From assembly GCA_903824965.1 (NCBI GenBank), contig CAIJYR010000138.1, positions 1 through 33,744 of the forward strand: a stretch of DNA of 33,744 nucleotides, written 5' to 3'. The position numbers and the translations under genes are program-made. The notes under the pieces were generated by a model. It worked only from the letters and a program-made list of their open reading frames with translations. It was not told the origin of the DNA and did not search any database. Below are positions 43 to 33,744 of the stretch, piece after piece. The DNA comes from an uncultured Thiotrichales bacterium (GTDB taxonomy: Bacteria > Pseudomonadota > Gammaproteobacteria > CAIRSR01). Within the stretch, counting starts at the first letter, position 1. Each line of letters starts with the position of its first letter.

Positions 43-187
43 TTACTATAAGGCTACATTAATCCATTACCTCTTGGAAGGATTCTGATGGTGGTCATAG
101 GTGGCAACTTGGGTTACTATAAGGCTACATTAATCCATTACCTCTTGGAAGGATTCTGATGGTGGTCATAGGTGGCAACTTGGGTTA
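43..187. repeat. 71-bp tandem duplication (two copies) across a gene start
   Basis: Bases 43-113 are repeated immediately at 114-184, and identity continues to 187, so this is a perfect direct repeat with a 71-nt period. The second copy contains the GTG start and first five codons of the DUF262 gene. In the first copy the same GTG (101) runs into a TAA after ten codons. The period is not a multiple of three, so the copies cannot be read through in one frame. Nothing recognisable lies in bases 1-42. Confidence 0.95.
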
Positions 188-1197
188 GAGAGTATCCTGT
201 GGAGGTGCTGGTCAGTAAGTTTTCAAAGAAAGGAAAGAAAGGAGAGGAGGCAGACGAAGGTGACTTTTTTATTCCAGATTATCAGCGTGAGTTCAGATGG
301 CCACGGGAACGGCAGTCGCGCTTTATCGAATCAGTTCTGATTGGATTACCCGTTCCGTTGTTGTTTGTGGCGGATGTGGCAGGGCAGGATGGGAAGGCAG
401 AGGTTGTAGATGGTGTGCAGAGGATGAGTACCCTGGCCGATTTTATGAACAATGAACTAACGCTCATCGGCCTTGAGATGCTTGATAGCCTGAATGGTTT
501 TACCTTTGCCGACCTCCCAGTAGTTCGCCAACGGCGTTTTGGTCGCCAGACAATTCGGATGATTGAGCTAAGGGAAGGAGTGGACGACGAGGTGCGTCGC
601 AATATTTTTAAGCGTCTTAATAGTGGTGGGCTGAGTCTTAACGATATGGAAATACGCTGGGGAGGATGGGATGGCCCGTTTCTAAGGTTCATCCGTACAT
701 GCTCTGAAAATGACTTGTTTAAGAAACTTGCGCCGATGACAGAGAGCGCAAAGAAACTGCGTGAACCTCAAGAACTAGTCCTTCGGTTCTTCGCCTATTT
801 GAATCGTTATCAGAAGTTTAATCGTAGTGTGATGGATTTTCTGAATGGTTATCTTGAGGATATGGAGAAATTGTTTTGTGGTGAGAGCGGAAAGAAAGTG
901 GAGGAAGAATTGCGGTTAGAATTCGAGCGCATGTTGGTATTTGTTGATCGGTATATCCGCACAGGATTTTCTCAGAGGGTGGGATATACACGAACTCCCC
1001 GTATTCGCTTTGAGGCGATGGCGGTTGGTACTGCACTCGCCTTGCGTGCCAAGCCTGATTTGGTTCCTGTATCTCTGGATTGGTTGGCATCGGATGATTT
1101 CAAGGGTGTTATACGGCCTGACTCAAGTAATTCCGCACAGAAAGTGGCACGCCGTCTTGAGTTTGTTCGTGACAAGCTGCTTGGAACGACGAAATGA
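172..1197 (+). CDS. DUF262 domain protein (ParB/Srx-like, GmrS-type N-terminal domain)
   Basis: This is a 341-residue protein of the DUF262 family. The N-terminal half carries family features: a YPVEVLV start, the FIPDYQREFRW segment (about residues 32-42) and DGVQR followed by MSTLADF (about 80-90), the counterpart of the usual DGQQR nucleotide-binding/nuclease motif. FKRLNSGG (about 145-152) is another conserved block. DUF262 proteins are nucleases or NTPases found in GmrSD-type restriction and other defence islands; the function here is inferred. The GTG at 172 is chosen because TAG sits immediately upstream in frame (169-171) and the protein starts just before the conserved YPVEVLV block. 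The stop overlaps the next gene's ATG by four bases, so the two are probably translated together. The start lies in a 71-bp duplication. Confidence 0.85.
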   Translation: MATWVREYPVEVLVSKFSKKGKKGEEADEGDFFIPDYQREFRWPRERQSRFIESVLIGLPVPLLFVADVAGQDGKAEVVDGVQRMSTLADFMNNELTLIGLEMLDSLNGFTFADLPVVRQRRFGRQTIRMIELREGVDDEVRRNIFKRLNSGGLSLNDMEIRWGGWDGPFLRFIRTCSENDLFKKLAPMTESAKKLREPQELVLRFFAYLNRYQKFNRSVMDFLNGYLEDMEKLFCGESGKKVEEELRLEFERMLVFVDRYIRTGFSQRVGYTRTPRIRFEAMAVGTALALRAKPDLVPVSLDWLASDDFKGVIRPDSSNSAQKVARRLEFVRDKLLGTTK

Positions 1198-1910
1198 CGG
1201 ATGCTCTTCGCATTTTTCGTGAACGGGTGGCCGAAATGGAGGCGTATTGTGCTTTTATTCAAGATGTTGAGAAAGGATGTATATTGCTGCACGACAAGGA
1301 TGGTGTACTTGCGTATACTACTGCAGATCAGAGCAGTCTGCTGATTACCTCCAAGGCCCATCTCTTTCTGTTGTTGTATAACCTAATGGAATCTAGTGTA
1401 GACAATGGGATCAGAGAAATTCTCGATCAGTTGATTGACCGACGTGTTGCTTTTGATAAGTGCTGCGATAATATCCGTCGCTTTCTCGTTTTCTGTCTTG
1501 GGAAGCAGAATCTTGGAAAGAGGGACCGCCTAGAAAAAGTCATCTTGGGAGATCATGAAATTACTCGTGACGTAATTTATTGTGACGTAATTTATAAACG
1601 TTCCAAGAATGCTAACAAGTGGATAACCAACATTCCAATATCTTCTGGAAATGTAACGAAAGAAACAATAGTAAAGCTTTCAGATAATTACGGATTTTCT
1701 GCTCCAGGTGTAGACGGACAATATCTAAGTACTGTGACGGATATTCGGAATGACCTCGCTCACGGGAATAGATCATTCTCGGAAGTAGGGCGAGACTACA
1801 CCATAGAACGAATTTTTGAAATAAAGGCAAATGTCATTGCATATCTCGATGCACTGCTGACCAATATTGCCAAGTATATTCAGGAACAACAATATCTTGC
1901 TACACCATAG
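1194..1910 (+). CDS. HEPN-like nuclease, MAE_28990/MAE_18760 type, partner of the DUF262 gene
   Basis: A 238-residue all-helical protein. Near the C-terminus (about residues 183-190) it carries RNDLAHG, which fits the R-x4-6-H motif that forms the RNase active site of HEPN domains. The preceding region has helices typical of this family (HLFLLLYNLMESSV at about 55-70). HEPN proteins of this group are often encoded next to DUF262 proteins in defence or toxin-antitoxin-like modules. The gene starts at the ATG of an ATGA overlap with the DUF262 stop, which indicates one operon and probably a two-component complex. Internally it is AT-richer than the nearby housekeeping genes, consistent with horizontal transfer. 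The nuclease assignment rests on the motif and the neighbour; the target is unknown. Confidence 0.75.
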   Translation: MTDALRIFRERVAEMEAYCAFIQDVEKGCILLHDKDGVLAYTTADQSSLLITSKAHLFLLLYNLMESSVDNGIREILDQLIDRRVAFDKCCDNIRRFLVFCLGKQNLGKRDRLEKVILGDHEITRDVIYCDVIYKRSKNANKWITNIPISSGNVTKETIVKLSDNYGFSAPGVDGQYLSTVTDIRNDLAHGNRSFSEVGRDYTIERIFEIKANVIAYLDALLTNIAKYIQEQQYLATP

Positions 1911-14935: not shown

Positions 14936-15681
14936 AGCCCCCGATGATCACAGACAACCACACAATGCCAAACAACCACACAACCCTTCCAGCAAGTCCC
15001 GCAAAGAACGGCGCTGTGGTCGTATGCCGTGGCTTGGCGAAGACCTTCGCAGAGGGCGATCTACGGGTCGAGGTCTTGCACCAGGTCGATCTGACCGTAG
15101 CACCCAATGAACGCCTGGCCATCGTGGGAACGTCTGGCTCCGGCAAAAGCACTTTATTGCATCTGTTGGGGGGGTTGGATGTACCGAGTGCGGGCGAGGT
15201 GTGGGTGGACGGCGAAGATCTGCTGCGTTTGAGCGAAGCAGCCCGTGGTCGCTTGCGTAATCGGGCGCTTGGTTTTATCTACCAATTTCACCATTTGCTT
15301 CCCGAATTCACTGCCCTAGAAAACGTCGCGATGCCCCTTTTGATCCGAGGCGTTTCGCCCCGCGTGGCGACAGAGCAAGCGCGGAGTTTGCTCGATCGGG
15401 TGGGCCTCAAGGAACGGCTGCGCCACAAACCCGGCGAGCTTTCTGGGGGGGAACGCCAACGGGCTGCCGTAGCCCGCGCCATCATTACCCGACCCCGCTG
15501 CGTACTCGCCGATGAACCCACGGGCAACCTCGATCAGGGGACTGCGATGCAGGTACTTGCGTTGATGCTGGAACTCAACCAAGATTTTGGTACAAGCTTG
15601 GTGATCGTGACCCATGACACCGGCTTGGCCAAACGCATGGATCGGGTTCTCACTTTGATCGATGGACGGTTACAAGACTAG
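14932..15681 (+). CDS. lolD: Lipoprotein-releasing ABC transporter ATPase LolD
   Basis: The cytoplasmic ATPase that powers lipoprotein release with the permease just upstream. The 249-residue protein has Walker [10 protein letters not shown] (about residues 64-72), a Q-loop region [18 protein letters not shown] typical of LolD/MacB ATPases, signature LSGGERQR, Walker B CVLADEPT followed by GNLD, and the switch His in VIVTHD. It starts at an ATGA overlapping the lolC stop. Another ATG lies at 14944. The first 25 or so residues (Asn/Pro/Thr-rich) are an unconserved extension. Its TAG stop shares three bases with the stop of the convergent DUF697 gene. Confidence 0.93.
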
Positions 15682-16164
15682 CGTTTTGCGTGCTGTGCGA
15701 TCTGTTCCTGCACAATCGCCTTTCCTTCTTCTAGCAGTTCGTTGTATTGCTCTTTTGCGTTGGCGGGGTCGATTTTCGAGAGTTCGAGTCCTTGTTCTAG
15801 GTGCTTCAGAAAAGTACGACCAATGGCATACGTAGACGCTCCAGCAAACACAGCCAAACCCACCGCACCCCCAACCCCAGCCGGAGACACTTTGCTCATG
15901 CTAAGACCCACCGTAGCCGCAGCACTAGCCCCCCCCAGTCAGGGCAAGAATAAAAGCACGGGATTGACGGCGATCAAACCGGATACCGTATTCCACGCAA
16001 ATTTCACGCATCATTTTGAGCTGCAGAGAAAGCATAAACAGTAGGTCAATCAACGGAATCGGTACAATCCCAGCCCATACGCCCCAAAAAACATGATCGA
16101 GGACAATGTTCTGGGCACGCATATGGTGCTCTTCGTGGGCCTTTATTACATCGGGTGGTGCCAT
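15678..16164 (-). pseudogene. DUF697 (YcjF-like) membrane protein interrupted by a +1 frameshift in a run of eight G
   Basis: Two frames together make one DUF697 protein. The first (from ATG 16164, AGGAG seven bases upstream) reads MAPPDVIKAHEEHHMRAQNI, then GIVPIPLIDLLFMLSLQLKMM and ALTGGG before TAG. The second continues with GGAVGLAVFAGASTYAIGRTF (second membrane helix) to a normal end at 15678. The join lies at a run of eight C on the plus strand (15929-15936). Removing one base gives an uninterrupted 161-residue protein with both expected helices. The cause could be a sequencing error, slippage-based on/off switching or true decay. It lies 8 bp downstream of the outer-membrane factor gene, so the pair is one transcript. 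DUF697 proteins are inner-membrane proteins of unknown role. Confidence 0.8.
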
Positions 16165-16172
16165 GGTTTCTC

Positions 16173-17615
16173 CTAGTCTACGGTTGGCTGTTGGGGCTTC
16201 ACAGGTATCGTGTCTTGGTTCAAGTCCCAACCACCCCCCAGGGCTTTCAAGAGGGCTACGCTCGCAGTCAGACGACGGCCCAAAAGGGTGTTGAGGGTGT
16301 TCTCTGCGGACAAAAGGGTGGCCTGGGTGGTTACGACATTCAGGTAACTGACCGTGCCGAGTTTATACTGGTTGATCGTCAAACGTACCGACTCGCGGGC
16401 TGCTACAACCGCCTGTTCTTGGACAGATGCCTCGCGTGCCAGGGTAGACCATGCTGCAAGGTTGTCCTCTACTTCTTGGAAGGCGGTCAACACGGTTTGG
16501 CGATAGGTGGCAACCGTTGCTTCAAAGGTGGCGATGGCATTCTCGGTTTTGGCACTGCGTAGCCCACCATCCAAGAGAGTCGCCGCAAGGTTCGGCCCCA
16601 ACGCCCAAAAACGATTGGCCACGGTCAGCCACTGAGACAGGTGCTCGCTCCGGAATCCCCCGTTCCCTGTGAGGGTGAGGGTCGGAAAGAAAGCAGCCTT
16701 CGCAACCCCGATCTGTGCATTGGCCGCTGCAACCCGCCGCTCCGCTCCCGCAATGTCAGGACGCCGCTCCAAGAGCATGGAGGGGACAGCCACCGGAATA
16801 CTTGGGATCGTGAGGGGCTTGTGCTCCACAGGCAACGAAAAATCGCTCGGCGGTTGCCCAATCAGCACCGCAATGGCATGTTCTAACGTGGCACGCTGAA
16901 CCCCCACATCAATGGCCTGTGCGCGGGTGATCTCCAGTTGGGTTTGGGCTTGCACCACAGTGACGCGGGTGACAATGCCATAGTCGTATTGGTTTTGGGT
17001 CAGCCGTAGCGCGTTTTGATACGCCTGAACAGTATCGTTGAGCAGCTTTTGTTGAAGATCAGACACGCGCAACTGAAAATAGTCTTGCGCCAACGTCGCC
17101 TGTACGCTCAAGCGTACATTGGCAAGGTCTGCGGTACTTGCGGCCACGGTGTCTGTGCCAGACTCTATGGAATGCCCTACCCTGCCCCACAGATCCGCTT
17201 CCCAACTGGCCTGGAGCGTGAGGTTGTCGGTGGTTGCAACGCTTGGGCCGTTTGCCGTATTGGACTGTGCACGGCTGGAGGAGGCATTCGCAGTGACGGT
17301 GGGCCACCTAGCCGCCTGTGCCTCTTGCAAGAGTGTACGGGCTTGGTGCAGTTGTGCGAGTGCACCCTGGACGCTCTGGTTGGCGGTTGCCGCCTGTTCC
17401 TCCAGTGCGTCCAATGCCGGATCGCCGTAGAGCTTCCACCACGATCCGCGAGGCATAGCATCGCTTGGTTCTGCGGATTTCCACTCGCCTGCTTCTTTGA
17501 ATGCTGGGGGTATTTCCACCGTGGGACGCACGTATGCGGGGCCAACGGTGCAAGCACCCATCAGTATCGCCGCAAGAAGGGCGGGAAAAACGCGCACAAA
17601 GACCATCTTTTTCAT
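16173..17615 (-). CDS. Outer-membrane factor lipoprotein (NodT/OprM family, TolC-like)
   Basis: A 480-residue outer-membrane channel for tripartite export. It has a lipoprotein signal peptide ending LMGAC (lipobox Cys at about residue 20), the opening TVGPAYVRPTVEIPPAF, and two tandem OEP repeats of long helices typical of NodT-type factors. Recognisable blocks are LDALEEQAATANQSVQGALAQLHQARTLLQEA (shown in part), ASWEADLWGRV in the first half, and LLERRPDIAGAERRVAAANAQIGVAKAAFFPTLTLTG in the second, each a family hallmark. The ATG at 17615 is chosen because the signal peptide follows directly; the frame stays open upstream to 17864 but would overlap the divergent gene. It faces the adaptor and ABC genes across 124 bp, so it most likely supplies their outer-membrane exit duct. 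Confidence 0.92.
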   Translation of the reverse strand: MKKMVFVRVFPALLAAILMGACTVGPAYVRPTVEIPPAFKEAGEWKSAEPSDAMPRGSWWKLYGDPALDALEEQAATANQSVQGALAQLHQARTLLQEAQAARWPTVTANASSSRAQSNTANGPSVATTDNLTLQASWEADLWGRVGHSIESGTDTVAASTADLANVRLSVQATLAQDYFQLRVSDLQQKLLNDTVQAYQNALRLTQNQYDYGIVTRVTVVQAQTQLEITRAQAIDVGVQRATLEHAIAVLIGQPPSDFSLPVEHKPLTIPSIPVAVPSMLLERRPDIAGAERRVAAANAQIGVAKAAFFPTLTLTGNGGFRSEHLSQWLTVANRFWALGPNLAATLLDGGLRSAKTENAIATFEATVATYRQTVLTAFQEVEDNLAAWSTLAREASVQEQAVVAARESVRLTINQYKLGTVSYLNVVTTQATLLSAENTLNTLLGRRLTASVALLKALGGGWDLNQDTIPVKPQQPTVD

Positions 17616-17739
17616 AAGGGGAACTCGGAAAACCAGGGTGTCGTACAGGTCATGTGCAATCCCAGAGAGGTGATACAATGACGAACTGCTGGCGCATAAC
17701 AGTCGCGTACGCAGGAGCACCTGATTGGACGAATCGACC

Positions 17740-18318
17740 ATGGCTACCCCCTTTCCCTGTACCATCCGTTCTCTGGATCTTGATCGTGCTGACAGTGAGG
17801 TTGCACGAATCGGATTGTTGGTTGCAATATTGCTTTGTTTTCTGTGGGGTCTCTGGTTTCTCACGGCACCCGTACTTTCTTACCAGGTCACACGCGCAGT
17901 CAGTGTAACCCAAGAGGAAGACACCATCGTTCGCACGCCCCAGGAGGGAGGAGGCGCGATTCGCCCACAGCTTTTTCGGCGACGAGGAATTCTAGCAACC
18001 TTTCCCACCGAGGCCACGCAAAACATACAACTCGGTCAAGCGGCCTTTTTGCGTCTAGCAGGGGCAGGACAGGCAAGGGGGGCGATTCCTGCGGTGGTGG
18101 CTGAGATCAAGCCTTCCACCACCCCCGGCAAAATCACGGTGAAATTATACACCCTGCAAGAAGGAAATCACCCGTACCCCTTTACCGGAAACGAACTGGG
18201 CGAAGTGACGATTGAACGGCCCAGCGATATCCCAATCGGCCTTGTCTTCCGTGCCTTAGGCGTATCGACGGAAACACCTCCTGTATCGCTCAGTCCCGCA
18301 CCGCATACGCCCCCATGA
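17740..18318 (+). CDS. Miniature HlyD-like membrane-fusion protein
   Basis: A 192-residue protein with one N-terminal transmembrane helix (about residues 23-47, IGLLVAILLCFLWGLWFL) and a periplasmic part. The segment ATFPTEATQNIQLGQAAFLRL, followed by VVAEIKPSTTPGKITVKLYTL, resembles the beta-barrel domain of HlyD adaptors. The long helical hairpin and lipoyl halves seen in 350-450-residue adaptors are missing. The stop overlaps the next ABC gene (ATGA), so the two are co-translated. It is probably the periplasmic link between the ABC transporter and the TolC-like factor; that role is inferred from the operon and the weak barrel similarity. The C-terminus (about 20 residues) is Pro/Thr/Ser-rich. 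Confidence 0.65.
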   Translation: MATPFPCTIRSLDLDRADSEVARIGLLVAILLCFLWGLWFLTAPVLSYQVTRAVSVTQEEDTIVRTPQEGGGAIRPQLFRRRGILATFPTEATQNIQLGQAAFLRLAGAGQARGAIPAVVAEIKPSTTPGKITVKLYTLQEGNHPYPFTGNELGEVTIERPSDIPIGLVFRALGVSTETPPVSLSPAPHTPP

Positions 18319-21005
18319 TTTTTAACAACGCGCCCCCACAACGGCGGTTTTTTGTGCCTGAGGTGGTACAAACCTCTGCGATGGACTGTGGGCCTGCTGC
18401 GCTCAAGGCATTGCTGGAGGGTTTTGGGATTCGTGTCCATTATGGACGACTCCGCGAGGTTTGCCAGACCAGTGTAGACGGTACTTCCATTGACACCCTG
18501 GAGGTGGTTGCGAACCAATTAGGGCTGGTTGCATCCCAGATCATGGTGCCGATCGATCATCTCTTTTTGGAGAATACCCCTGTACTGCCAGCACTGACGG
18601 TGATACGTTTGCCGAATGGTCTGACGCATTTTGTCATTATATGGCGGAACCATGGACGGTTTGTGCAAGTGATGGATCCTGGTATAGGCAGACGTTGGGT
18701 AACCAGAAAACAACTGCTGGAAGAATTGTATATTCACAACCAGGTGGTTCCGGCTGATGCGTGGTACGCATGGGCCTGTTCGGAGGATTTCTGTGCCCCA
18801 CTGCGCCAACGCCTGGCAGAGCTGGAAGTGCCAGAATCCACGCAGGAGTCGTTTCTTCGGAACGCTTTGGCGAGTGGACACTGGAAAACCTTGGCGACCT
18901 TGGATGCAGCCATTCGCATGACGGCCACACTGGTACGCACAGGGGGATTACAAGCGGGCACGGAAGCGAGCGATGTTTTGACGCGGTTCTTGGTCTCGGA
19001 CAGTCTGACGATTCCCACCTCCTTTTGGTCTGTGTGTGCGCTGCCGGAGGAGGATACCCAATTGTTATTCCAAGCACCGGTGCTCATTCAGGTCTCAGGT
19101 CTCCGAGAAACACCCGCCCCAGAGGACATGGTTCAGGCGCTCCCTCCCGAATGGGTGAGTGCTCTTGCTGAGTCAGGCCAATCTCCCGAACAGTATCTGT
19201 GGGAATTATTAAAAAAAGATGGGTTCCTGACGCAGACGATTGTACTAGTGGCATTGTTGTTTGCGACCCTTGGGGTTACGCTTTTGCCTTTGTTGTTTCG
19301 GTTTCTATTGGAAATGGGCCAACATTTGGATTTGGTAGGGGAACGAATCAACGCTATTGAGGCACTGATCGCCTTTCTGGTTGTTTTGCTGTCGTTACAA
19401 GTACCCATCGCTGCTATGGGCGTCTGGATGGGCAGGCGATTAGAAACACATTTACGCCTTGCCTTTCTCGGAAAGATACCCCGTTTGGGGGATCATTATT
19501 TCCGCAGTCGCCTGGCCTCAGACATGACCGAGCGTGCCTACGGACTCATGGTCATCAATCAATTGCCACCACTCGTCACCCATTTCTTACAGTTGCTCTT
19601 GACGATGGTATTGACAGCGGTCGGTATTGCTATGCTAAGCCCCGAAAGTTCCTGGCTCGCAGTGGCAGCCACGGTGATGAGCATCTGCATGTCCCTCGTG
19701 GCACAACCGGTACTCACCGAACAAGATATGCGTTTCCGTACCCATGAGGCAGCACTCAGTCGTTTCTACCTCGATGCACTGCTTGGATTGATCCCCATTC
19801 GCACGCATGGTGCTGCACATGCCTTTCGGAGTGAACAGGAAAGTTTGTTGGTACAGTGGTCAAAGAGCGGCATAGACTTTGCAGAAATACGATTGTTGGT
19901 CATTGCCCTCAGCTTGTTCATGAATACCGGTTTTGTAGTCTGGATTGTCCTACGTTATGTGGAAGAAGGCGGTAGCGCCAGTGGTGTCTTGGTGCTCTTG
20001 TATTGGGCGCTGCGTCTACCCGATTTGGGTATGCAAATGGCGAACCTCACCCAACAATACCCTATGTTGAGAAACCGTATTCTCCGTTTATTAGAACCGT
20101 TGCATGCACCCGAAGAGACAGAGATGTGGTATTCGGGACAACCGGAAACAGGGATTTCTCCCACGGTGGCTGACACTGGGGGTGTTGCGATTGACCTGCA
20201 AGGGGTCACTGTACAAACCGCAGGGCATTCTATTTTACGGGAGATTTCAGTAGCCATTGCAGCGGGTGCACACCTTGCCATTGTCGGTTCTTCTGGGGCT
20301 GGAAAATCAAGTCTGGTTGGGTTGTTGTTGGGTTGGTATCACCCATCCGAAGGGGTTGTTCGGGTAGACGGCGCGTTATTACAAGGTGAACGTCTGCAGC
20401 GTTTGCGTCAAGAAACTGCTTGGGTCGACCCTTCGATACAAGTGTGGAATCGTTCGTTGCAGGACAATTTGTATTATGGTACCCACGGTGTGGCCGAACC
20501 TTTCCAGACGGTGCTTGATCAGGCCGATCTAGTGTCCGTTCTGGAAAGGCTACCCGACGCTGAGCAGACCGTGCTAGGGGAAGGGGGCGGTTTGGTGTCG
20601 GGTGGTGAAGGACAACGAGTACGCCTAGGGCGTGCTATGCTGCGGTCTGGGGTGAAACTGGTCATCCTGGATGAGCCGTTTCGGGGACTCGACAGAGAGA
20701 AACGTCGGCAATTGTTAGACCGCGCCCGTCGCTATTGGGCATCAGCGACGCTGATCTTTATTTCCCACGATGTGGGGGATACGCAAAGCTTTCAGCGGGT
20801 CTTGGTGGTAGAAGAAGGACGTGTAACCGAGGACAATCCCCCTACCGTACTTTTGGAACAGCCAAACTCGCGCTACCGTCAATTATTGACGGCAGAGAAA
20901 GCAGTACGTCAAGAACTATGGGAAGGCAAGGAGTGGCAGCATTGGTGGTTAGAAGGGGGAGAATTGCGAGCAGACGGGCCGGAAAGGACACCGCCTACCC
21001 CATAG
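18315..21005 (+). CDS. Peptidase C39-containing ABC exporter (bacteriocin/microcin type)
   Basis: An 896-residue fusion. Residues of about 10-150 form a C39 cysteine peptidase with the catalytic set intact: Cys25 in MDCGPAALKALL, His105 in GLTHFVII and Asp121 in VMDPG. Such domains cut double-glycine leaders during export. Residues of about 150-295 are an extra region of unknown fold not found in standard C39 exporters. About 300-575 is a six-helix exporter membrane domain. About 625-870 is the ATPase with Walker A GSSGAGKSS, signature VSGGEGQR, Walker B LVILDEPFRGLD and switch His in FISHD. It is co-translated with the mini-adaptor upstream and followed by a second ABC gene, resembling NHLM-type bacteriocin export loci. 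The substrate is not evident in the window. Confidence 0.9.
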   Translation: MIFNNAPPQRRFFVPEVVQTSAMDCGPAALKALLEGFGIRVHYGRLREVCQTSVDGTSIDTLEVVANQLGLVASQIMVPIDHLFLENTPVLPALTVIRLPNGLTHFVIIWRNHGRFVQVMDPGIGRRWVTRKQLLEELYIHNQVVPADAWYAWACSEDFCAPLRQRLAELEVPESTQESFLRNALASGHWKTLATLDAAIRMTATLVRTGGLQAGTEASDVLTRFLVSDSLTIPTSFWSVCALPEEDTQLLFQAPVLIQVSGLRETPAPEDMVQALPPEWVSALAESGQSPEQYLWELLKKDGFLTQTIVLVALLFATLGVTLLPLLFRFLLEMGQHLDLVGERINAIEALIAFLVVLLSLQVPIAAMGVWMGRRLETHLRLAFLGKIPRLGDHYFRSRLASDMTERAYGLMVINQLPPLVTHFLQLLLTMVLTAVGIAMLSPESSWLAVAATVMSICMSLVAQPVLTEQDMRFRTHEAALSRFYLDALLGLIPIRTHGAAHAFRSEQESLLVQWSKSGIDFAEIRLLVIALSLFMNTGFVVWIVLRYVEEGGSASGVLVLLYWALRLPDLGMQMANLTQQYPMLRNRILRLLEPLHAPEETEMWYSGQPETGISPTVADTGGVAIDLQGVTVQTAGHSILREISVAIAAGAHLAIVGSSGAGKSSLVGLLLGWYHPSEGVVRVDGALLQGERLQRLRQETAWVDPSIQVWNRSLQDNLYYGTHGVAEPFQTVLDQADLVSVLERLPDAEQTVLGEGGGLVSGGEGQRVRLGRAMLRSGVKLVILDEPFRGLDREKRRQLLDRARRYWASATLIFISHDVGDTQSFQRVLVVEEGRVTEDNPPTVLLEQPNSRYRQLLTAEKAVRQELWEGKEWQHWWLEGGELRADGPERTPPTP

Positions 21006-21037
21006 ATTGTGATCTGATTATGATCTGATTGTGATCT
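21005..21037. repeat. Three tandem 11-bp repeats (GATTRTGATCT) after the ABC gene
   Basis: GATTGTGATCT, GATTATGATCT and GATTGTGATCT follow one another without a gap, the first base being the last base of the upstream stop codon. An 11-bp period puts the repeats on one face of the helix, so a protein-binding site is possible. No function is known. Confidence 0.7.
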
Positions 21038-21397
21038 GTTTCACGACACACAACCTACGTAGGATGTTTTAGTTTTTTGCTGGTTTATTGCCGCCAGCTT
21101 TTACGCCCGTTTTTACGACCATTTGTCTCTCCTCAATAATGTTTTTGGTATAGTGGAATGCAACAGCAAGATTAGGCTAACATACGTTCTACGAGGTTGT
21201 AAAGTTTCCAATGTGCCGTTCTTGATCCTACAGATGCTTGTAGCCTTTGATAAACCCCTTCCCTGGGGGAAGGGGCTTGGGGATAGGGTTTTTGATCTTG
21301 ATCTTGATCTTGATAAAACCAATTCAAAACCAGCCCCATTTCTTTTTTTATCACAAAGTCAAAATCTTGTACGCTGATTGATGAGCAGTTACCTAAA
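21038..21397. other. Gene-free gap between two ABC transporter genes, with a palindromic repeat
   Basis: I find no convincing gene here and no candidate precursor peptide with a Gly-Gly leader. The contents are a hairpin CCCCTTCCC-TGG-GGGAAGGGG (21255-21275) followed by CTTGGGGATAGGG, the same family as the repeats at 11595-11762, and 3.8 units of TTGATC (21292-21314). An 84-codon frame (21123-21377) runs through both repeats and looks accidental. The hairpin could act as a processing or termination site separating expression of the two transporters. Confidence 0.7.
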
Positions 21398-23539
21398 ATG
21401 AACCACACGATTGATTGGAACAGCGCAACCTGGCACGCCTCACAATTACACGAAGCCATGATCTTGTTGGCCAGGAAAGCACGCCTGTTGTCTCAATCAC
21501 CCGACACCTTGGAAATGTCAGGATATACTGGCCCCGCCCAGGAAGAGCGTATTCATGCCTGGATGACGGTCATGGCACAATCCATCGGCATTGAAACAGA
21601 AGCCGTAGACCTGCCGTATGCCGACCTGCAACGCAGCCTACAAAAAATCGGGCCTGCCTTGATTCGCTTTCCCGATGGCAAATCCCTGCGCTTCTTGGCA
21701 ATTATAAAAAGCACCGACAAACGAATACAGATCATCACCCCAAATCGCACGATTCAATCTATTGCACCCTCGCAATTGCGTAACGTATTGGCTGATGGAC
21801 TAGAAACCCCCCTCCTCCCTACGATACAAACCCTCTTGTCAGAAACCCATATTCCGGCAGAACGGCATATCACCACACAGACCGCATTGTTACGCGAACA
21901 ACTGGGTTCTACACCCATTGGTGGTTGTTGGTTGCTACGCTTTTCCCCAGGCGATGGGTTTCTCAAACAGTGTGTTCACTCAGGAGTATCCGTCACTATC
22001 ATCACCATCCTTGGCACCAGCCTCCTCGCACAGATCTTAATATTATTTGGTTGGTGGGTCATTGGTGAGGGTGCACTCTCTGGGCATTTTGAATGGACTT
22101 GGTTGATGGCTTGGGTGCTTTTATTGTTCACAGCAGTGCCTCTACAATCTGCCATGACTTGGAAACAAAGTTTATTTTCCCTAGCATTGGGGCGATTGTT
22201 CAAACAGCGATTATTGTATGGTATTTTGCAACTAGCACCAGAAGAGATTCGCCATCAAGGGGCGGGTCAGTTTATGGGGATTGTGCTAGAGACAGAGTCA
22301 TTAGAATCTCTCGCCCTGTCCGGTGGTGTGATGGTTCCCTTTGCGCTCTTGAAAATCTTCATCCTGATGGGTGTGTTAGCATTGTGTGCGGGCGGTTTTT
22401 TGCTTGTTCTTCTGCTCTGCGGTTGGATAATAGTGAGTGGAATACTCATTGGGTACAACTACCAACGTATGAATGCTTGGATGGCTGTTTATCGAGAGAT
22501 GACCAACGACTTGGTAGAACGCATGGTAGGACACCGAACACGTCTTGCACAAGAGACCCCATCCCATTGGCACGACGAAGAAGATGCCCTACTGGATCGG
22601 TATGTGCAATCTTCCAAACGAAAGGATCAGTTGAACGTCTTGGTTTCTTCTGTGGTTGAATACGGCTGGTTGGTGCTGGGCGTGGCAGGGATTGCCTATC
22701 CCTTTGTGACCAATCCCAACGAATCCTCTACGCTGGCCATAGCGTTTGGGTGTATTTTATTGGTTTCGCAATCGCTCAACGAATTGGTCACCGGAACAGC
22801 CAGTTTTCTGGGAGCGATGGTTACGTGGAAACAAGTTGGGCCTTTGTTTCAAGCAGCGGCACGTGGTGAACGTCGTGAAAGGGAACAATCCGCAATGGAT
22901 ATGACGGTTCCACTCACATCGACCAATACTCCGATGATCACGGCGCACGATGTAAGTTTTCGGTACCGACGTGTGGCCAAACCTGCCTTGCAGCACTGTA
23001 CGCTCAGGATTGATCAGGGAGAACGTATTTTGTTGGAAGGCCCGTCAGGGGGTGGCAAGTCTACGTTGGCGGCATTGCTCGCAGGACTGCGTTTGCCAGG
23101 CGAAGGGCAATTGTCCTTGTGGGATGTGCCACAAGCAACATTGGGCATAGAAACGTGGCGGCGTCGTATCGTCACGGCGCCCCAGTTCCATGAGAACCAT
23201 GTCTTTGTCGAGACTTTTGCGTTTAATCTATTGATGGGGCGACGGTGGCCACCCTTGCCAGAGGACTTGAGAGATGCCGAGATCCTATGCCGAGAATTGG
23301 GTCTAGGGGAGTTGCTAGAACGCATGCCGTCTGGATTCCAACAAATGGTTGGAGAGAGTGGATGGCAACTTTCGCATGGGGAACGCAGCCGATTATACAT
23401 CGCACGCGCTCTCCTTCAGTCTGCGGATTTCATGATTCTTGATGAGAGTTTCGCAGCTCTGGATCCAGAAAACCTCAAACATGCCTTGCAATGCGTACTA
23501 CGCCGTGCCCCTACTTTGTTGGTCATTGCGCATCCGTAG
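21398..23539 (+). CDS. Second ABC exporter with a degenerate C39-like N-terminal domain
   Basis: A 713-residue protein. The first 190 residues parallel the C39 domain of the upstream exporter (ALIRFPDGKSLRFLAIIK against ALTVIRLPNGLTHFVIIW), but the catalytic Cys, His and Asp are absent. It is therefore probably a non-cleaving leader- or cargo-binding domain. Membrane helices follow from about residue 195 to 470. The ATPase has Walker A GPSGGGKST (about 548), signature LSHGERSR (His for the usual second-position Gly), Walker B FMILDESFAALD and switch His in LLVIAHP. The protein stops directly after that His, lacking the usual 40-60-residue tail. It pairs with the C39 exporter, probably as the second half of the export machine, as ABC1/ABC2 do in NHLM systems. 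Confidence 0.85.
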   Translation: MNHTIDWNSATWHASQLHEAMILLARKARLLSQSPDTLEMSGYTGPAQEERIHAWMTVMAQSIGIETEAVDLPYADLQRSLQKIGPALIRFPDGKSLRFLAIIKSTDKRIQIITPNRTIQSIAPSQLRNVLADGLETPLLPTIQTLLSETHIPAERHITTQTALLREQLGSTPIGGCWLLRFSPGDGFLKQCVHSGVSVTIITILGTSLLAQILILFGWWVIGEGALSGHFEWTWLMAWVLLLFTAVPLQSAMTWKQSLFSLALGRLFKQRLLYGILQLAPEEIRHQGAGQFMGIVLETESLESLALSGGVMVPFALLKIFILMGVLALCAGGFLLVLLLCGWIIVSGILIGYNYQRMNAWMAVYREMTNDLVERMVGHRTRLAQETPSHWHDEEDALLDRYVQSSKRKDQLNVLVSSVVEYGWLVLGVAGIAYPFVTNPNESSTLAIAFGCILLVSQSLNELVTGTASFLGAMVTWKQVGPLFQAAARGERREREQSAMDMTVPLTSTNTPMITAHDVSFRYRRVAKPALQHCTLRIDQGERILLEGPSGGGKSTLAALLAGLRLPGEGQLSLWDVPQATLGIETWRRRIVTAPQFHENHVFVETFAFNLLMGRRWPPLPEDLRDAEILCRELGLGELLERMPSGFQQMVGESGWQLSHGERSRLYIARALLQSADFMILDESFAALDPENLKHALQCVLRRAPTLLVIAHP

Positions 23540-23545
23540 CATCAC

Positions 23546-24016
23546 TCAAAGCATCGCGAGGATTTTCCCATCCATGAGACGAAGGCGCTGGCTCAGGGTT
23601 TTGCCGAGTTTGAGAAGCAGCTTGGCACCAAGGGCAGGGTCGTCCTTGATGAGCTGAAGAAGACTTTCTTTTGTCAGGCGTAGCACCGTAGTGATTTCTG
23701 AGGCAACCACCGTCGCTGATCGTGGTTCACCGTCCAACAACGACATCTCCCCAAAGGATTTACCCTTGCCAAGAGAGCTTAGCGTCTTCTTTTTGTTATA
23801 ATCATCGTCCTTGAGAATATTGACTCTACCTACAATAATGATACACATGAATGCTTCACGTGTACCCTCTTTGAGAATCGTCTCTCCTTGCGGATACACT
23901 TGAAATTTCAAGTAACCGGCAAATTTCTTTCTTTCCTCCAAAGACAATCCATCCGCCCATGTGGTGACCGAAAAGACTTCCAGGATGGTTTCTACGTCTG
24001 TGTTGCTCTGATTCAT
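23546..24016 (-). CDS. Cyclic-nucleotide-binding domain protein
   Basis: A 156-residue cytoplasmic protein consisting essentially of one cNMP-binding (CRP-like) beta-roll, with FQVYPQGETILKEG (about 39-52), VGRVNIL and the phosphate-binding cassette SFGEMSLLDGEPRSATVVA (about 91-109), whose Glu and Arg match cAMP/cGMP binders. There is no DNA-binding domain, so it is not a transcription factor. It may sense a cyclic nucleotide and act through a partner. It converges on the second ABC gene with a 6-bp gap and lies 25 bp downstream of the SirB2-family gene on the same strand. A tie to the export system is suggested only by position. Confidence 0.85.
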   Translation of the reverse strand: MNQSNTDVETILEVFSVTTWADGLSLEERKKFAGYLKFQVYPQGETILKEGTREAFMCIIIVGRVNILKDDDYNKKKTLSSLGKGKSFGEMSLLDGEPRSATVVASEITTVLRLTKESLLQLIKDDPALGAKLLLKLGKTLSQRLRLMDGKILAML

Positions 24017-31723: not shown

Positions 31724-33744
31724 TTATTTTAGCTCCCTACCTGAGGTGAGAAAGCCGTTTCTAAAAGGATCGCCCCCCCCCGGCAAGCGAACACTCTGTT
31801 GATGGCTGCTCAGCGAAAGGGTTCGATTCATCAGAGCACCATTTGCATCAAACTGTCCCAATACCTGCACCATTTGGCTGATTGTCACCCCCAGCGAGGC
31901 ATCCACGAGCTGCACCCCCTGCAAATCCATTTCTTTTCTTTGAGGCCCTCTCATCACCCCACCCCAGTTTCCAACCTGCGTCATAGACCGAAGCGCAAGC
32001 GTCGCCGTGCTCACCCCTGGAATCGAGGTAAGACTTGCCACTTGCTTGCTGGTTAAAGCACACAATTGTGTGCTGGTCAGCGCATTGGCTTGAGCAGCAG
32101 TCATGGCCCTGAGCTGGAGAGTGCTCAAAGCCGCCACCGCTGTCGTGCTCAGCGCAGCAATAGCCGTGGTCGTCAGAAACGGCACATCTGTTGTAGTGAG
32201 CGCCCGTGCCTGTGACGCAAGCATTGCCGCCACTTGAACAGAGGTCAATGCTGCCACCTGATCGGTGGTGAGTACCCTGATTTGGCTTGTTTTCAGAACA
32301 CCCATCTGGGCGAGACTCAACGCAGCTATCTGATCTGTCGTCAGCACGCTAATCTGGGCCGTGCTCAACACACCTATCTGTGCAGTCGTCAAAGCGGAAA
32401 TCTTTTCTGGCCAAATCGCGCTCAGTTGCGTTGTGGTCACTGCTGCCCATTGTGATGTTTTGAGTGCTTGGAGTTGTTCAAAGCTGAATACCATCATCTG
32501 ATCCGTCGTCAGGGATCCGATTTGGGCTGTGCTCAGAGCAGCCACCGCCGCTGTGGTCAGGGCGTGGATCTCCCATCCCAGGGCTAGCACCGCTGTGGTG
32601 GTCAGTGCCATCGCCTGCGAAGCCGTGATCACACTTACCTGATTCTGATCGAGTGCGGCTACCTGATCCGTCGTGAGTGCACTGATTTGGTTTGTTTTTA
32701 AGTACCCTACCTGTTTTGTACTCAACCACGAGATCTGATCCGGCGTTAATGCACGGATCTGCAAGGTACTCAAAGCGCCTACCGCCAGGCTCGACAACCA
32801 GGGCATATCTCCTTCCCATAGTGCGGATATTCCCTGATTGGTCAGTGCCATGACCTGTGTGCTCGTGAGTACGCTTACTTGATCCCAGGTGAGTACCATC
32901 ACCTGATCCGTCGTCAGTGCGCTTATCTGGGATGCATTCAACGCTGCAATCACCGCTGTGCTCATGCCCTGCACTCTCCAATCGAGTGCGACCACATTCG
33001 TGGCGGTCAACGCAGCACCCTGCGTGCTGCTCAACGCTCCCACCTGATCCACGCTCAAGGCTGCCACCTGATCGGTGGTGAGTGCCCTAATTTGGGTTGT
33101 TTTCAGGGCGGCCATCTGCGTAGTACCGAACTGCACTACTTGATCGGTGTTCAGTACACGCACCTGGAAGGTGGTCAAGGCAGCGATCTGCACAGAGGTC
33201 AATGCAGCGATCTGATCCGAAGTCAGTGCGCCGATTTGGGTGGTGGTCAAGGCGGCGATCACAGCGGTGCTGAAGGCAGAGAGGTTCGTCGTTCGTATCG
33301 CTGCGACATCCGAGGTGTTCAGAGCACCGATCTGCGTGCTTCTCAGGGCAGCTGTCTGCAACGAGGTCAATGCAGCGATCTGATCCGAAGTCAGTGCGCC
33401 GATTTGCGTGCTTCTCAGGGCAGCTGTCTGCAACGAGGTCAATGCAGCGATCTGCTCAGTGCTCAGTACACCCATCTGGGTTGTCGTCAAGGCGGCGATC
33501 ACAGCGGTGCTGAAGGCAGAGAGGTTCGTCGTTCGTATCGCTGCGACATCCGAGGTGTTCAGAGCACCGATCTGCGTGCTTCTCAGGGCAGCCGTCTGCA
33601 ACGAGGTCAATGCAGCGATCTGGTCAGTGCTCAGTACACCCATCTGGGTTGTCGTCAAGGCGGCGATCACAGCGGTGCTGAAGGCAGAGAGGTTCGTCGT
33701 TCGTATCGCTGCGACATCCGAGGTGTTCAGAGCACCGATCTGCG
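31724..33744 (-). CDS. Giant octapeptide-repeat protein, C-terminal part (gene continues beyond the window)
   Basis: The frame is open from the window edge to a TAA at 31724, giving 673 residues of a longer protein. Nearly all of it (about 70 units) is an 8-residue repeat of the form L-[ST]-x-x-Q-[IVT]-x-A, with variants such as LTSDQIAA, LRSTQIGA and LTTDQVAA. The regular Leu/Gln/Ile spacing suggests a solenoid or beta-helix. The last 100 or so residues (from TSIPGVSTATLALRS) are not repetitive and end in GGGDPFRNGFLTSGRELK, a possible secretion or anchoring tail. The beginning is outside the window, so the start and any signal peptide are unseen. It is transcribed ahead of the HTH-Sel1 gene. 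I know of similar repeat proteins in proteobacteria but of no established function. Confidence 0.85.
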   Translation of the reverse strand, partial: QIGALNTSDVAAIRTTNLSAFSTAVIAALTTTQMGVLSTDQIAALTSLQTAALRSTQIGALNTSDVAAIRTTNLSAFSTAVIAALTTTQMGVLSTEQIAALTSLQTAALRSTQIGALTSDQIAALTSLQTAALRSTQIGALNTSDVAAIRTTNLSAFSTAVIAALTTTQIGALTSDQIAALTSVQIAALTTFQVRVLNTDQVVQFGTTQMAALKTTQIRALTTDQVAALSVDQVGALSSTQGAALTATNVVALDWRVQGMSTAVIAALNASQISALTTDQVMVLTWDQVSVLTSTQVMALTNQGISALWEGDMPWLSSLAVGALSTLQIRALTPDQISWLSTKQVGYLKTNQISALTTDQVAALDQNQVSVITASQAMALTTTAVLALGWEIHALTTAAVAALSTAQIGSLTTDQMMVFSFEQLQALKTSQWAAVTTTQLSAIWPEKISALTTAQIGVLSTAQISVLTTDQIAALSLAQMGVLKTSQIRVLTTDQVAALTSVQVAAMLASQARALTTTDVPFLTTTAIAALSTTAVAALSTLQLRAMTAAQANALTSTQLCALTSKQVASLTSIPGVSTATLALRSMTQVGNWGGVMRGPQRKEMDLQGVQLVDASLGVTISQMVQVLGQFDANGALMNRTLSLSSHQQSVRLPGGGDPFRNGFLTSGRELK
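33251..33744. repeat. Higher-order 168/240-bp direct repeats inside the octapeptide-repeat gene
   Basis: A block beginning GGCGGCGATCACAGCGGTGC occurs at 33251, 33491 and 33659, spaced 240 and 168 bp, that is ten and seven 24-bp repeat units. The copies at 33251 and 33491 are nearly identical at the DNA level for about 130 bp (one visible C/T change near 33591). This indicates recent unequal recombination or slippage. The third copy is cut by the window edge. Confidence 0.9.

What the first reader, a model, noticed from the sequence alone, without database searches (positions are those of the whole stretch)
16173..24016. Complete-looking trans-envelope peptide export locus with no visible substrate
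The locus combines an active C39-ABC exporter, a second ABC with a degenerate C39 domain, a mini-adaptor, a TolC-like lipoprotein, DUF697 and a cNMP-binding protein. It resembles NHLM bacteriocin export but differs in adaptor size and in the added region of the first ABC. No Gly-Gly-leader peptide is visible between or beside the genes, so the cargo is encoded elsewhere or is of a new kind. This is the best candidate here for an undescribed system.
Basis: partly seen in the sequence, partly recalled or inferred. Interest (0 to 1): 0.65.

Follow-up and report, generated by a model that had tools for sequence, protein, structure and literature searches.

The report
Peptide exporter with tiny-leader precursors
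This stretch encodes a two-transporter machine that probably cuts and exports very short ribosomal peptides, and its 'missing' cargo turns out to be a new family of tiny genes with a constant start (…T-x-V-K-A-G) and a changing tail, one of which sits unseen on the opposite strand between the two transporter genes.

Summary
The exporter is real. ABC1 (18315-21005) has an intact C39 protease domain; ABC2 (21398-23539) has a decayed C39-like N-terminus and ends at its H-loop; the mini-adaptor (17740-18318) is a HlyD protein without lipoyl domain and hairpin; a NodT outer-membrane lipoprotein is divergent. The ABC pair recurs in eight other genomes plus a Piscinibacter plasmid, where it lies inside a YcaO/MNIO RiPP cluster. 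It fails the curated NHLM cut-offs by a wide margin. The claim 'no substrate' is wrong: a 17-codon gene with a good ribosome-binding site at 21069-21122 (minus strand) encodes MVVKTGVKAG|GNKPAKN. Related peptides (constant leader ending T-x-[IVT]-[KR]-A-G, hypervariable tail) were found in all nine exporter genomes; one has six in tandem. In 369 genomes of the class a tight leader pattern hit only the two that carry ABC1. No family model or paper found describes the leader. Cleavage after Ala-Gly, product and activity are inferred, not shown. A second module (SPFH, DUF697, periplasmic-binding protein) accompanies the mini-adaptor form and elsewhere sits beside NRPS/PKS clusters.

The parts
17740..18318 (+). 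mini-adaptor: N-terminal TM helix plus HlyD-type beta-barrel domain, no lipoyl domain or alpha-hairpin (start at the conserved MATPF...)
18315..21005 (+). ABC1: active C39 protease + ~160-aa insert + membrane domain + NBD (Q-loop Gln replaced by Asp, WVDP)
21069..21122 (-). micropeptide precursor gene MVVKTGVKAG|GNKPAKN, SD GAGGAG
21398..23539 (+). ABC2: degenerate C39-like N-terminus, membrane domain, NBD that stops at the H-loop (...VIAHP*)
16173..17615 (-). NodT-family outer-membrane factor, lipoprotein (divergently transcribed)
15678..16164 (-). DUF697 protein in line with the OMF gene; reading frame broken at the C8 run near 15930
23546..24016 (-). cNMP-binding domain protein; membership in the system not shown

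Best explanation
The locus is a type I-like, two-ABC maturation and export machine for very short ribosomal peptides. The precursors carry a constant leader of about 10 residues (M-x-V-x-T-x-[IV]-[KR]-A-G; in some relatives a longer leader ending GLSxxTx[IT]RAG) followed by a hypervariable tail of 4 to about 30 residues. ABC1's C39 domain recognises the leader and cuts after Ala-Gly; ABC1 with ABC2 (whose dead C39-like domain may hold leader or core) moves the tail through the inner membrane; the hairpin-less adaptor and the NodT factor pass it through the envelope. Shown: gene anatomy, conservation of the set, existence and co-distribution of the peptide family, conserved leader with variable tail. 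Inferred: cleavage site, export, the pairing of ABC1 with ABC2 and the envelope path. Not known: whether tails are modified, and whether they are signals or antimicrobials.
For: ABC1 and ABC2 recur together, ABC1 42-65% identical, in 8 other genomes, with an adaptor wherever the contig reaches far enough. C39 catalytic Gln/Cys/His/Asp invariant. Small ORFs with the shared leader found beside the exporter or DUF697 gene in L020, L021, L022, L029, L031, L032 and in the window. Window pattern hit: 1 vs 0.00 expected in shuffles. Tight leader pattern in 369 class genomes: hits only in G000 (3) and G432 (1), the only two with ABC1 (Fisher p 1.5e-5); G432 was not used to derive the pattern, and it has six tandem genes MKVKTD[IV][KRH]AG with tails RTHVKIA, FIKF, DLPWLR, DLPMF, RTHVKITSSSPYGPSSPY, MKLPT. 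Leader vs tail identity: 0.89 vs 0.10 in G432, 0.49 vs 0.12 in G401. A P-type ATPase beside the G432 array is also beside the exporter in G116 and G167. Piscinibacter plasmid member lies with YcaO, TfuA, MNIO, ThiF and a 57-aa ORF.
Against: No expression, proteomic or biochemical data. The leader is shorter than the ~13 residues with hydrophobics at -4, -7, -12 and Gly-Gly/Ala/Ser that known C39 domains read (PMC6363468), so a C39 cut after Ala-Gly is extrapolated. The window tail GNKPAKN is only 7 residues. Most G000 peptides and the G432 array are not next to the exporter. In L029 the ORF lacks a clear SD in my scan. Only nine genomes; many are draft MAGs.
Confidence: 0.74

Rival explanations
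1. It is an NHLM (NHLP/Nif11 RiPP) export operon, diverged; the cargo is an ordinary Gly-Gly RiPP precursor elsewhere.
For: ABC1's best NCBIfam model is NHLM_micro_ABC1; same three-part make-up HlyD + C39-ABC + ABC (PMC2887384). Piscinibacter relative is in a RiPP cluster.
Against: 174 vs 853 bits for ABC1, 101 vs 709 for ABC2, full HlyD relatives 36-52 vs 156; ABC2's best model is CydC; the leader family found matches no NHLP or Nif11 model.
Confidence: 0.1
2. The exporter is real but the short ORFs are regulatory or structural leftovers (uORFs, translational leaders, repeats), not its cargo.
For: Very short (14-40 codons), often far from the exporter, two G000 copies share an upstream repeat.
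Against: Protein-level conservation of the leader with synonymous changes in DNA, hypervariable tails, SD in front of most, tandem multiplication, genome-level co-distribution with ABC1.
Confidence: 0.1
3. The machine mainly exports an NRPS/PKS product handled together with the SPFH-DUF697-PBP module; the peptides are accessory.
For: SPFH-PBP(-DUF697) sits beside NRPS/PKS genes in ABC1-negative genomes and beside a FAAL-PKS in this genome; PKS near the G432 peptide array.
Against: An active C39 protease implies a ribosomal leader; the window locus has no NRPS/PKS; full-HlyD members G125 and G403 lack the SPFH protein in the search.
Confidence: 0.06

Closest known systems
NHLM bacteriocin export (TIGR03794/TIGR03796/TIGR03797)
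   Same: HlyD-like protein plus C39-ABC plus second ABC lacking a working protease; multi-copy precursors with conserved leader and hypervariable core
   Different: Scores far below curated cut-offs; adaptor lost hairpin; ABC1 insert; ABC2 ends at H-loop; leader about 10 residues ending Ala-Gly instead of 70-80 residues ending Gly-Gly
PCAT/AMS bacteriocin and pheromone exporters (PCAT1, ComA, LahT)
   Same: C39 domain with the same catalytic residues; closest solved structures are PCAT1 4ry2 and relatives
   Different: Two different ABC chains, atypical Q-loop, very short leader
Class II microcin type I secretion (CvaAB-TolC; from own knowledge)
   Same: C39-ABC + HlyD adaptor + outer-membrane factor in Gram-negatives
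   Different: Single ABC, full adaptor, about 15-20 aa Gly-Gly leaders
BesA, hairpin-less adaptor of Borrelia (PMC3807786)
   Same: Top adaptor in the fold search (weak, E 5e-3); lacks the alpha-hairpin
   Different: Belongs to an RND pump; here the lipoyl part appears to be gone too

Membership tests
NHLM export system | ABC1 above TIGR03796 cut-off (853 bits) | tested here: not met
   174 bits
NHLM export system | ABC2 above TIGR03797 cut-off (709 bits) | tested here: not met
   101 bits
NHLM export system | HlyD above TIGR03794 cut-off (156 bits) | tested here: not met
   window adaptor no match; full-length relatives 36 and 52 bits
NHLM export system | NHLP or Nif11 precursors | tested here: inconclusive
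   candidate precursors match no NCBIfam or Pfam family; a genome-wide NHLP/Nif11 model search was not run
C39 peptidase-containing ABC exporter | catalytic Gln, Cys, His, Asp | tested here: met
   Q19, C25, H105, D121 invariant in 9 sequences
C39 peptidase-containing ABC exporter | double-glycine-type leader substrate | tested here: inconclusive
   leader ends Ala-Gly with hydrophobic at -4; no Gly-Gly, no -7/-12 pattern
C39 peptidase-containing ABC exporter | cleavage of the leader during export | not testable with these tools
   needs enzyme assay or mass spectrometry
HlyD/MFP periplasmic adaptor | TM helix, beta-barrel domain, lipoyl domain, alpha-hairpin | tested here: inconclusive
   TM helix and beta-barrel homology present; lipoyl and hairpin absent
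NodT/TolC outer-membrane factor | above TIGR01845 cut-off | tested here: met
   438 vs 210 bits

The most novel reading that the evidence does not exclude
A minimal peptide signalling (pheromone-like) system of Gram-negatives: families of 4- to 30-residue peptides released from a 10-residue leader, exported by a two-ABC/C39 machine with a hairpin-less adaptor, and perceived or gated by a membrane platform of SPFH protein, DUF697 protein and a lipoprotein that joins a periplasmic-binding domain to a peptidoglycan-binding OmpA domain; the same platform is shared with NRPS/PKS products.
Probability: 0.22. Interest if true: 0.85.

Novelty: new variant of a known kind. Interest (0 to 1): 0.66.

Why it matters
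It turns an orphan exporter into a testable exporter-cargo pair and adds a family of precursors so short (14-70 codons, leader as short as 10) that the Pfam and NCBIfam libraries have no model for them. A C39 protease that reads a 10-residue Ala-Gly leader would change the accepted minimum for substrate recognition, and gives a simple sequence rule for finding more such peptides. The link between this exporter, a hairpin-less adaptor and an SPFH/DUF697/binding-protein module that also accompanies NRPS/PKS clusters points to a shared envelope platform for peptide products for which I found no description.

Tried and rejected
Classic Gly-Gly leader scan of the window and relatives: nothing conserved. 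Filing under NHLM: rejected on all three curated cut-offs. Other C39 ABC loci of the genome as the cargo source: C94 is a separate cNMP-C39-ABC/HlyD locus with NRPS nearby, C118 and C182 encode C39-like proteins of other types. The loose 17-base DNA pattern was not enriched over its control (37 vs 49); only versions anchored on ATG and Val are informative. The C213, C80 and C150 pattern hits are not convincing genes. Structure prediction of C39 plus insert failed (pLDDT 42), so the insert's fold is unknown. Viral contigs: no relative; phage records: only general ABC similarity. Paper searches for the motif or for SPFH with DUF697 in NRPS clusters found nothing relevant.

Full report
Observation. 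The window (contig C138 of a 3.2 Mb draft genome) holds, on the plus strand, a mini-adaptor (17740-18318), ABC1 (18315-21005, overlapping start) and ABC2 (21398-23539). Divergent from them lie a NodT-family outer-membrane lipoprotein (16173-17615) and a DUF697 gene (15678-16164) that is split by a frameshift at a run of eight C; downstream on the minus strand are a cNMP-binding protein and SirB2. The flanking genes are housekeeping: LolC/E-LolD and purM/purN upstream, cyclophilin and purL downstream.

ABC1 has a C39 domain with Gln19, Cys25, His105 and Asp121, all invariant in nine sequences, about 160 residues of insert without a known family, and an NBD in which the Q-loop glutamine is Asp in every member inspected (WVDP). 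ABC2 has a region that hhalign matches to the C39 profile (83%, E 8.6e-6), but the His and Asp positions are not kept; its NBD keeps Walker A/B and signature and always ends at the H-loop (...[AT]HP/S stop). The mini-adaptor matches the last third of full-length HlyD relatives (E 3.5e-10), is predicted as a TM helix plus a beta domain (pLDDT 59) and its best adaptor hits in the PDB are BesA, the hairpin-less adaptor, and EmrA (weak, E 5e-3; PMC3807786).

Relatives. One scan of 85,000 species genomes found the set in a gammaproteobacterial MAG, Candidatus Parabeggiatoa and a Syntrophobacterales MAG. Profile searches found five more: G116, G125, G167, G198 and G432; none in the three other genomes of the window's own family. 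So the set is rare and patchy: 5 of 398 phylum genomes, 2 of 369 class genomes. Two members (L022, L030) keep a full HlyD of 396-414 residues; five others besides the window have the 170-215-residue mini form; the G432 contig ends before any adaptor gene. The mini-adaptor is thus a reduced HlyD.

Cargo. Scanning small ORFs near the relatives showed peptides that share G-[LMI]-x-x-x-T-x-[ITV]-[KR]-[AV]-G and then diverge: seven in L020, three in L021, one each in L029, L031, L032, usually next to DUF697 or between adaptor, ABC1 and ABC2. A profile search found further copies in G401 and one in G432. In the window's genome the short form appears: a pattern search hit 21094-21110 on the minus strand between ABC1 and ABC2; the ORF at 21069-21122 reads MVVKTGVKAGGNKPAKN after TTGAGGAGAGACAA. 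Dinucleotide shuffles of the window give no such hit. Further copies: C85 twice (MKVQTGIKAG...), C136 (MKVSTNVKAG...), C142 (...GLPVKTNVKAG...). L022 has MKVKTGIKAGG... upstream of its HlyD gene; G125 has MSVETDIQAGPQVAYEPEC.

Test of association. The tight pattern for MKVxTx[IV][KRQ]AG was run over the same 369 genomes that had been searched for ABC1: it hits G000 and G432 only, the two ABC1 carriers, with no control hits (p 1.5e-5). G432 had not been used to make the pattern. Reading its contig revealed six tandem genes, each with an AGG-type site, leaders 89% identical and tails 10% identical. Beside them is a P-type ATPase of the heavy-metal class, in which the usual CPC motif reads TAP in the G116 copy, that also flanks the exporter in G116 and G167, tying the array to the system although the exporter is on another contig. 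Caveat: only two positives, and the regular expression behind the 20-versus-0 count was derived from the positive loci.

Second module. In G116, G167 and G198 the exporter neighbours an SPFH/Band 7 protein, DUF697 and a lipoprotein with a periplasmic-binding domain, in two of them with TSP3 repeats and OmpA. All six mini-adaptor genomes have the SPFH protein, the two full-HlyD genomes do not (small numbers, p 0.036). In the phylum sample SPFH presence and ABC1 presence overlap more than chance (4 of 5 vs 13 of 393, p 1e-5). But the SPFH-DUF697-PBP trio also occurs without ABC1, then next to NRPS/PKS genes in most cases looked at (L102-L110), and in this genome SPFH-PBP sits between a phosphopantetheinyl transferase and a FAAL-PKS on C199. 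I take it as an envelope platform used with several peptide products; its role is unknown.

Independent support for the RiPP reading. A Piscinibacter gummiphilus plasmid carries the same exporter anatomy (ABC1 34% identical over C39 plus insert; ABC2 ending at the H-loop; an HlyD-like frame upstream) in a cluster with ThiF, an MNIO enzyme (MbnB/TglH/ChrH family), a carbamoyltransferase-YcaO protein, TfuA and a 57-residue ORF ending ...KVNVKLG|PIPFIAGLSNKARQKPW (the split point is my guess). No modification enzyme was seen beside the window's peptides, so they may be exported unmodified.

Comparison with the known. NHLM export has the same three parts (PMC2887384) but all three curated cut-offs are missed by a factor of three or more. 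Known C39 domains need about 13 leader residues with hydrophobics at -4, -7 and -12 and a Gly-Gly/Ala/Ser end (PMC6363468); here there are 10 residues, a hydrophobic at -4, Thr at -6 and Ala-Gly. No Pfam or NCBIfam family matches the peptides, and no paper in the library prints the motif. I therefore call it a new variant of a known kind: works like a PCAT/NHLM exporter, not a member of NHLM.

Noticed in passing
window 15678-16164 (minus): DUF697 gene broken by a frameshift at a run of eight C near 15930; assembly error or real pseudogenisation not resolved.
   Followed up: partly
L036 (own contig C199) 400-11897: PPTase, CAAX protease, SPFH, binding-protein gene and a FAAL-PKS in a row; the SPFH-PBP module is paired with a polyketide gene here.
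   Followed up: partly
L102-L110 (G060, G076, G048, G140, G056, G080, G283, G285, G360): SPFH-DUF697-PBP trio repeatedly beside NRPS/PKS megasynthases in genomes without ABC1; no description found in the paper library.
   Followed up: partly
L156 (Piscinibacter gummiphilus plasmid NZ_CP136338.1): RiPP cluster with MNIO, YcaO-carbamoyltransferase, TfuA and ThiF together with this exporter type; product unknown.
   Followed up: partly
L029 2234-4339, L053 408-2237, L153 1-1460 and 8934-10940: P1B-like ATPase, apparently without the CPC metal-binding motif, recurrent neighbour of the exporter or the peptide array.
   Followed up: partly
L037 (own contig C94): Separate cNMP-C39-ABC protein (1059 aa) with HlyD, three outer-membrane-efflux-like genes, FHA protein, sigma-54 regulator and an adenylation-domain (NRPS-like) gene.
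   Followed up: partly
window 31724-33670 (minus): 648-aa protein with 16 ALTTAQ repeats (PF20080).
   Followed up: no
L029 13545-13709, L032 15463-15621, L050 2947-3222: Small conserved membrane protein (LGRxRKMGFWGYFFGSxxLTPxxGL) next to the SPFH gene in several loci.
   Followed up: no
window 172-1910: GmrSD N-terminal domain protein followed by a HEPN (MAE_28990-like) protein, a possible defence pair.
   Followed up: no
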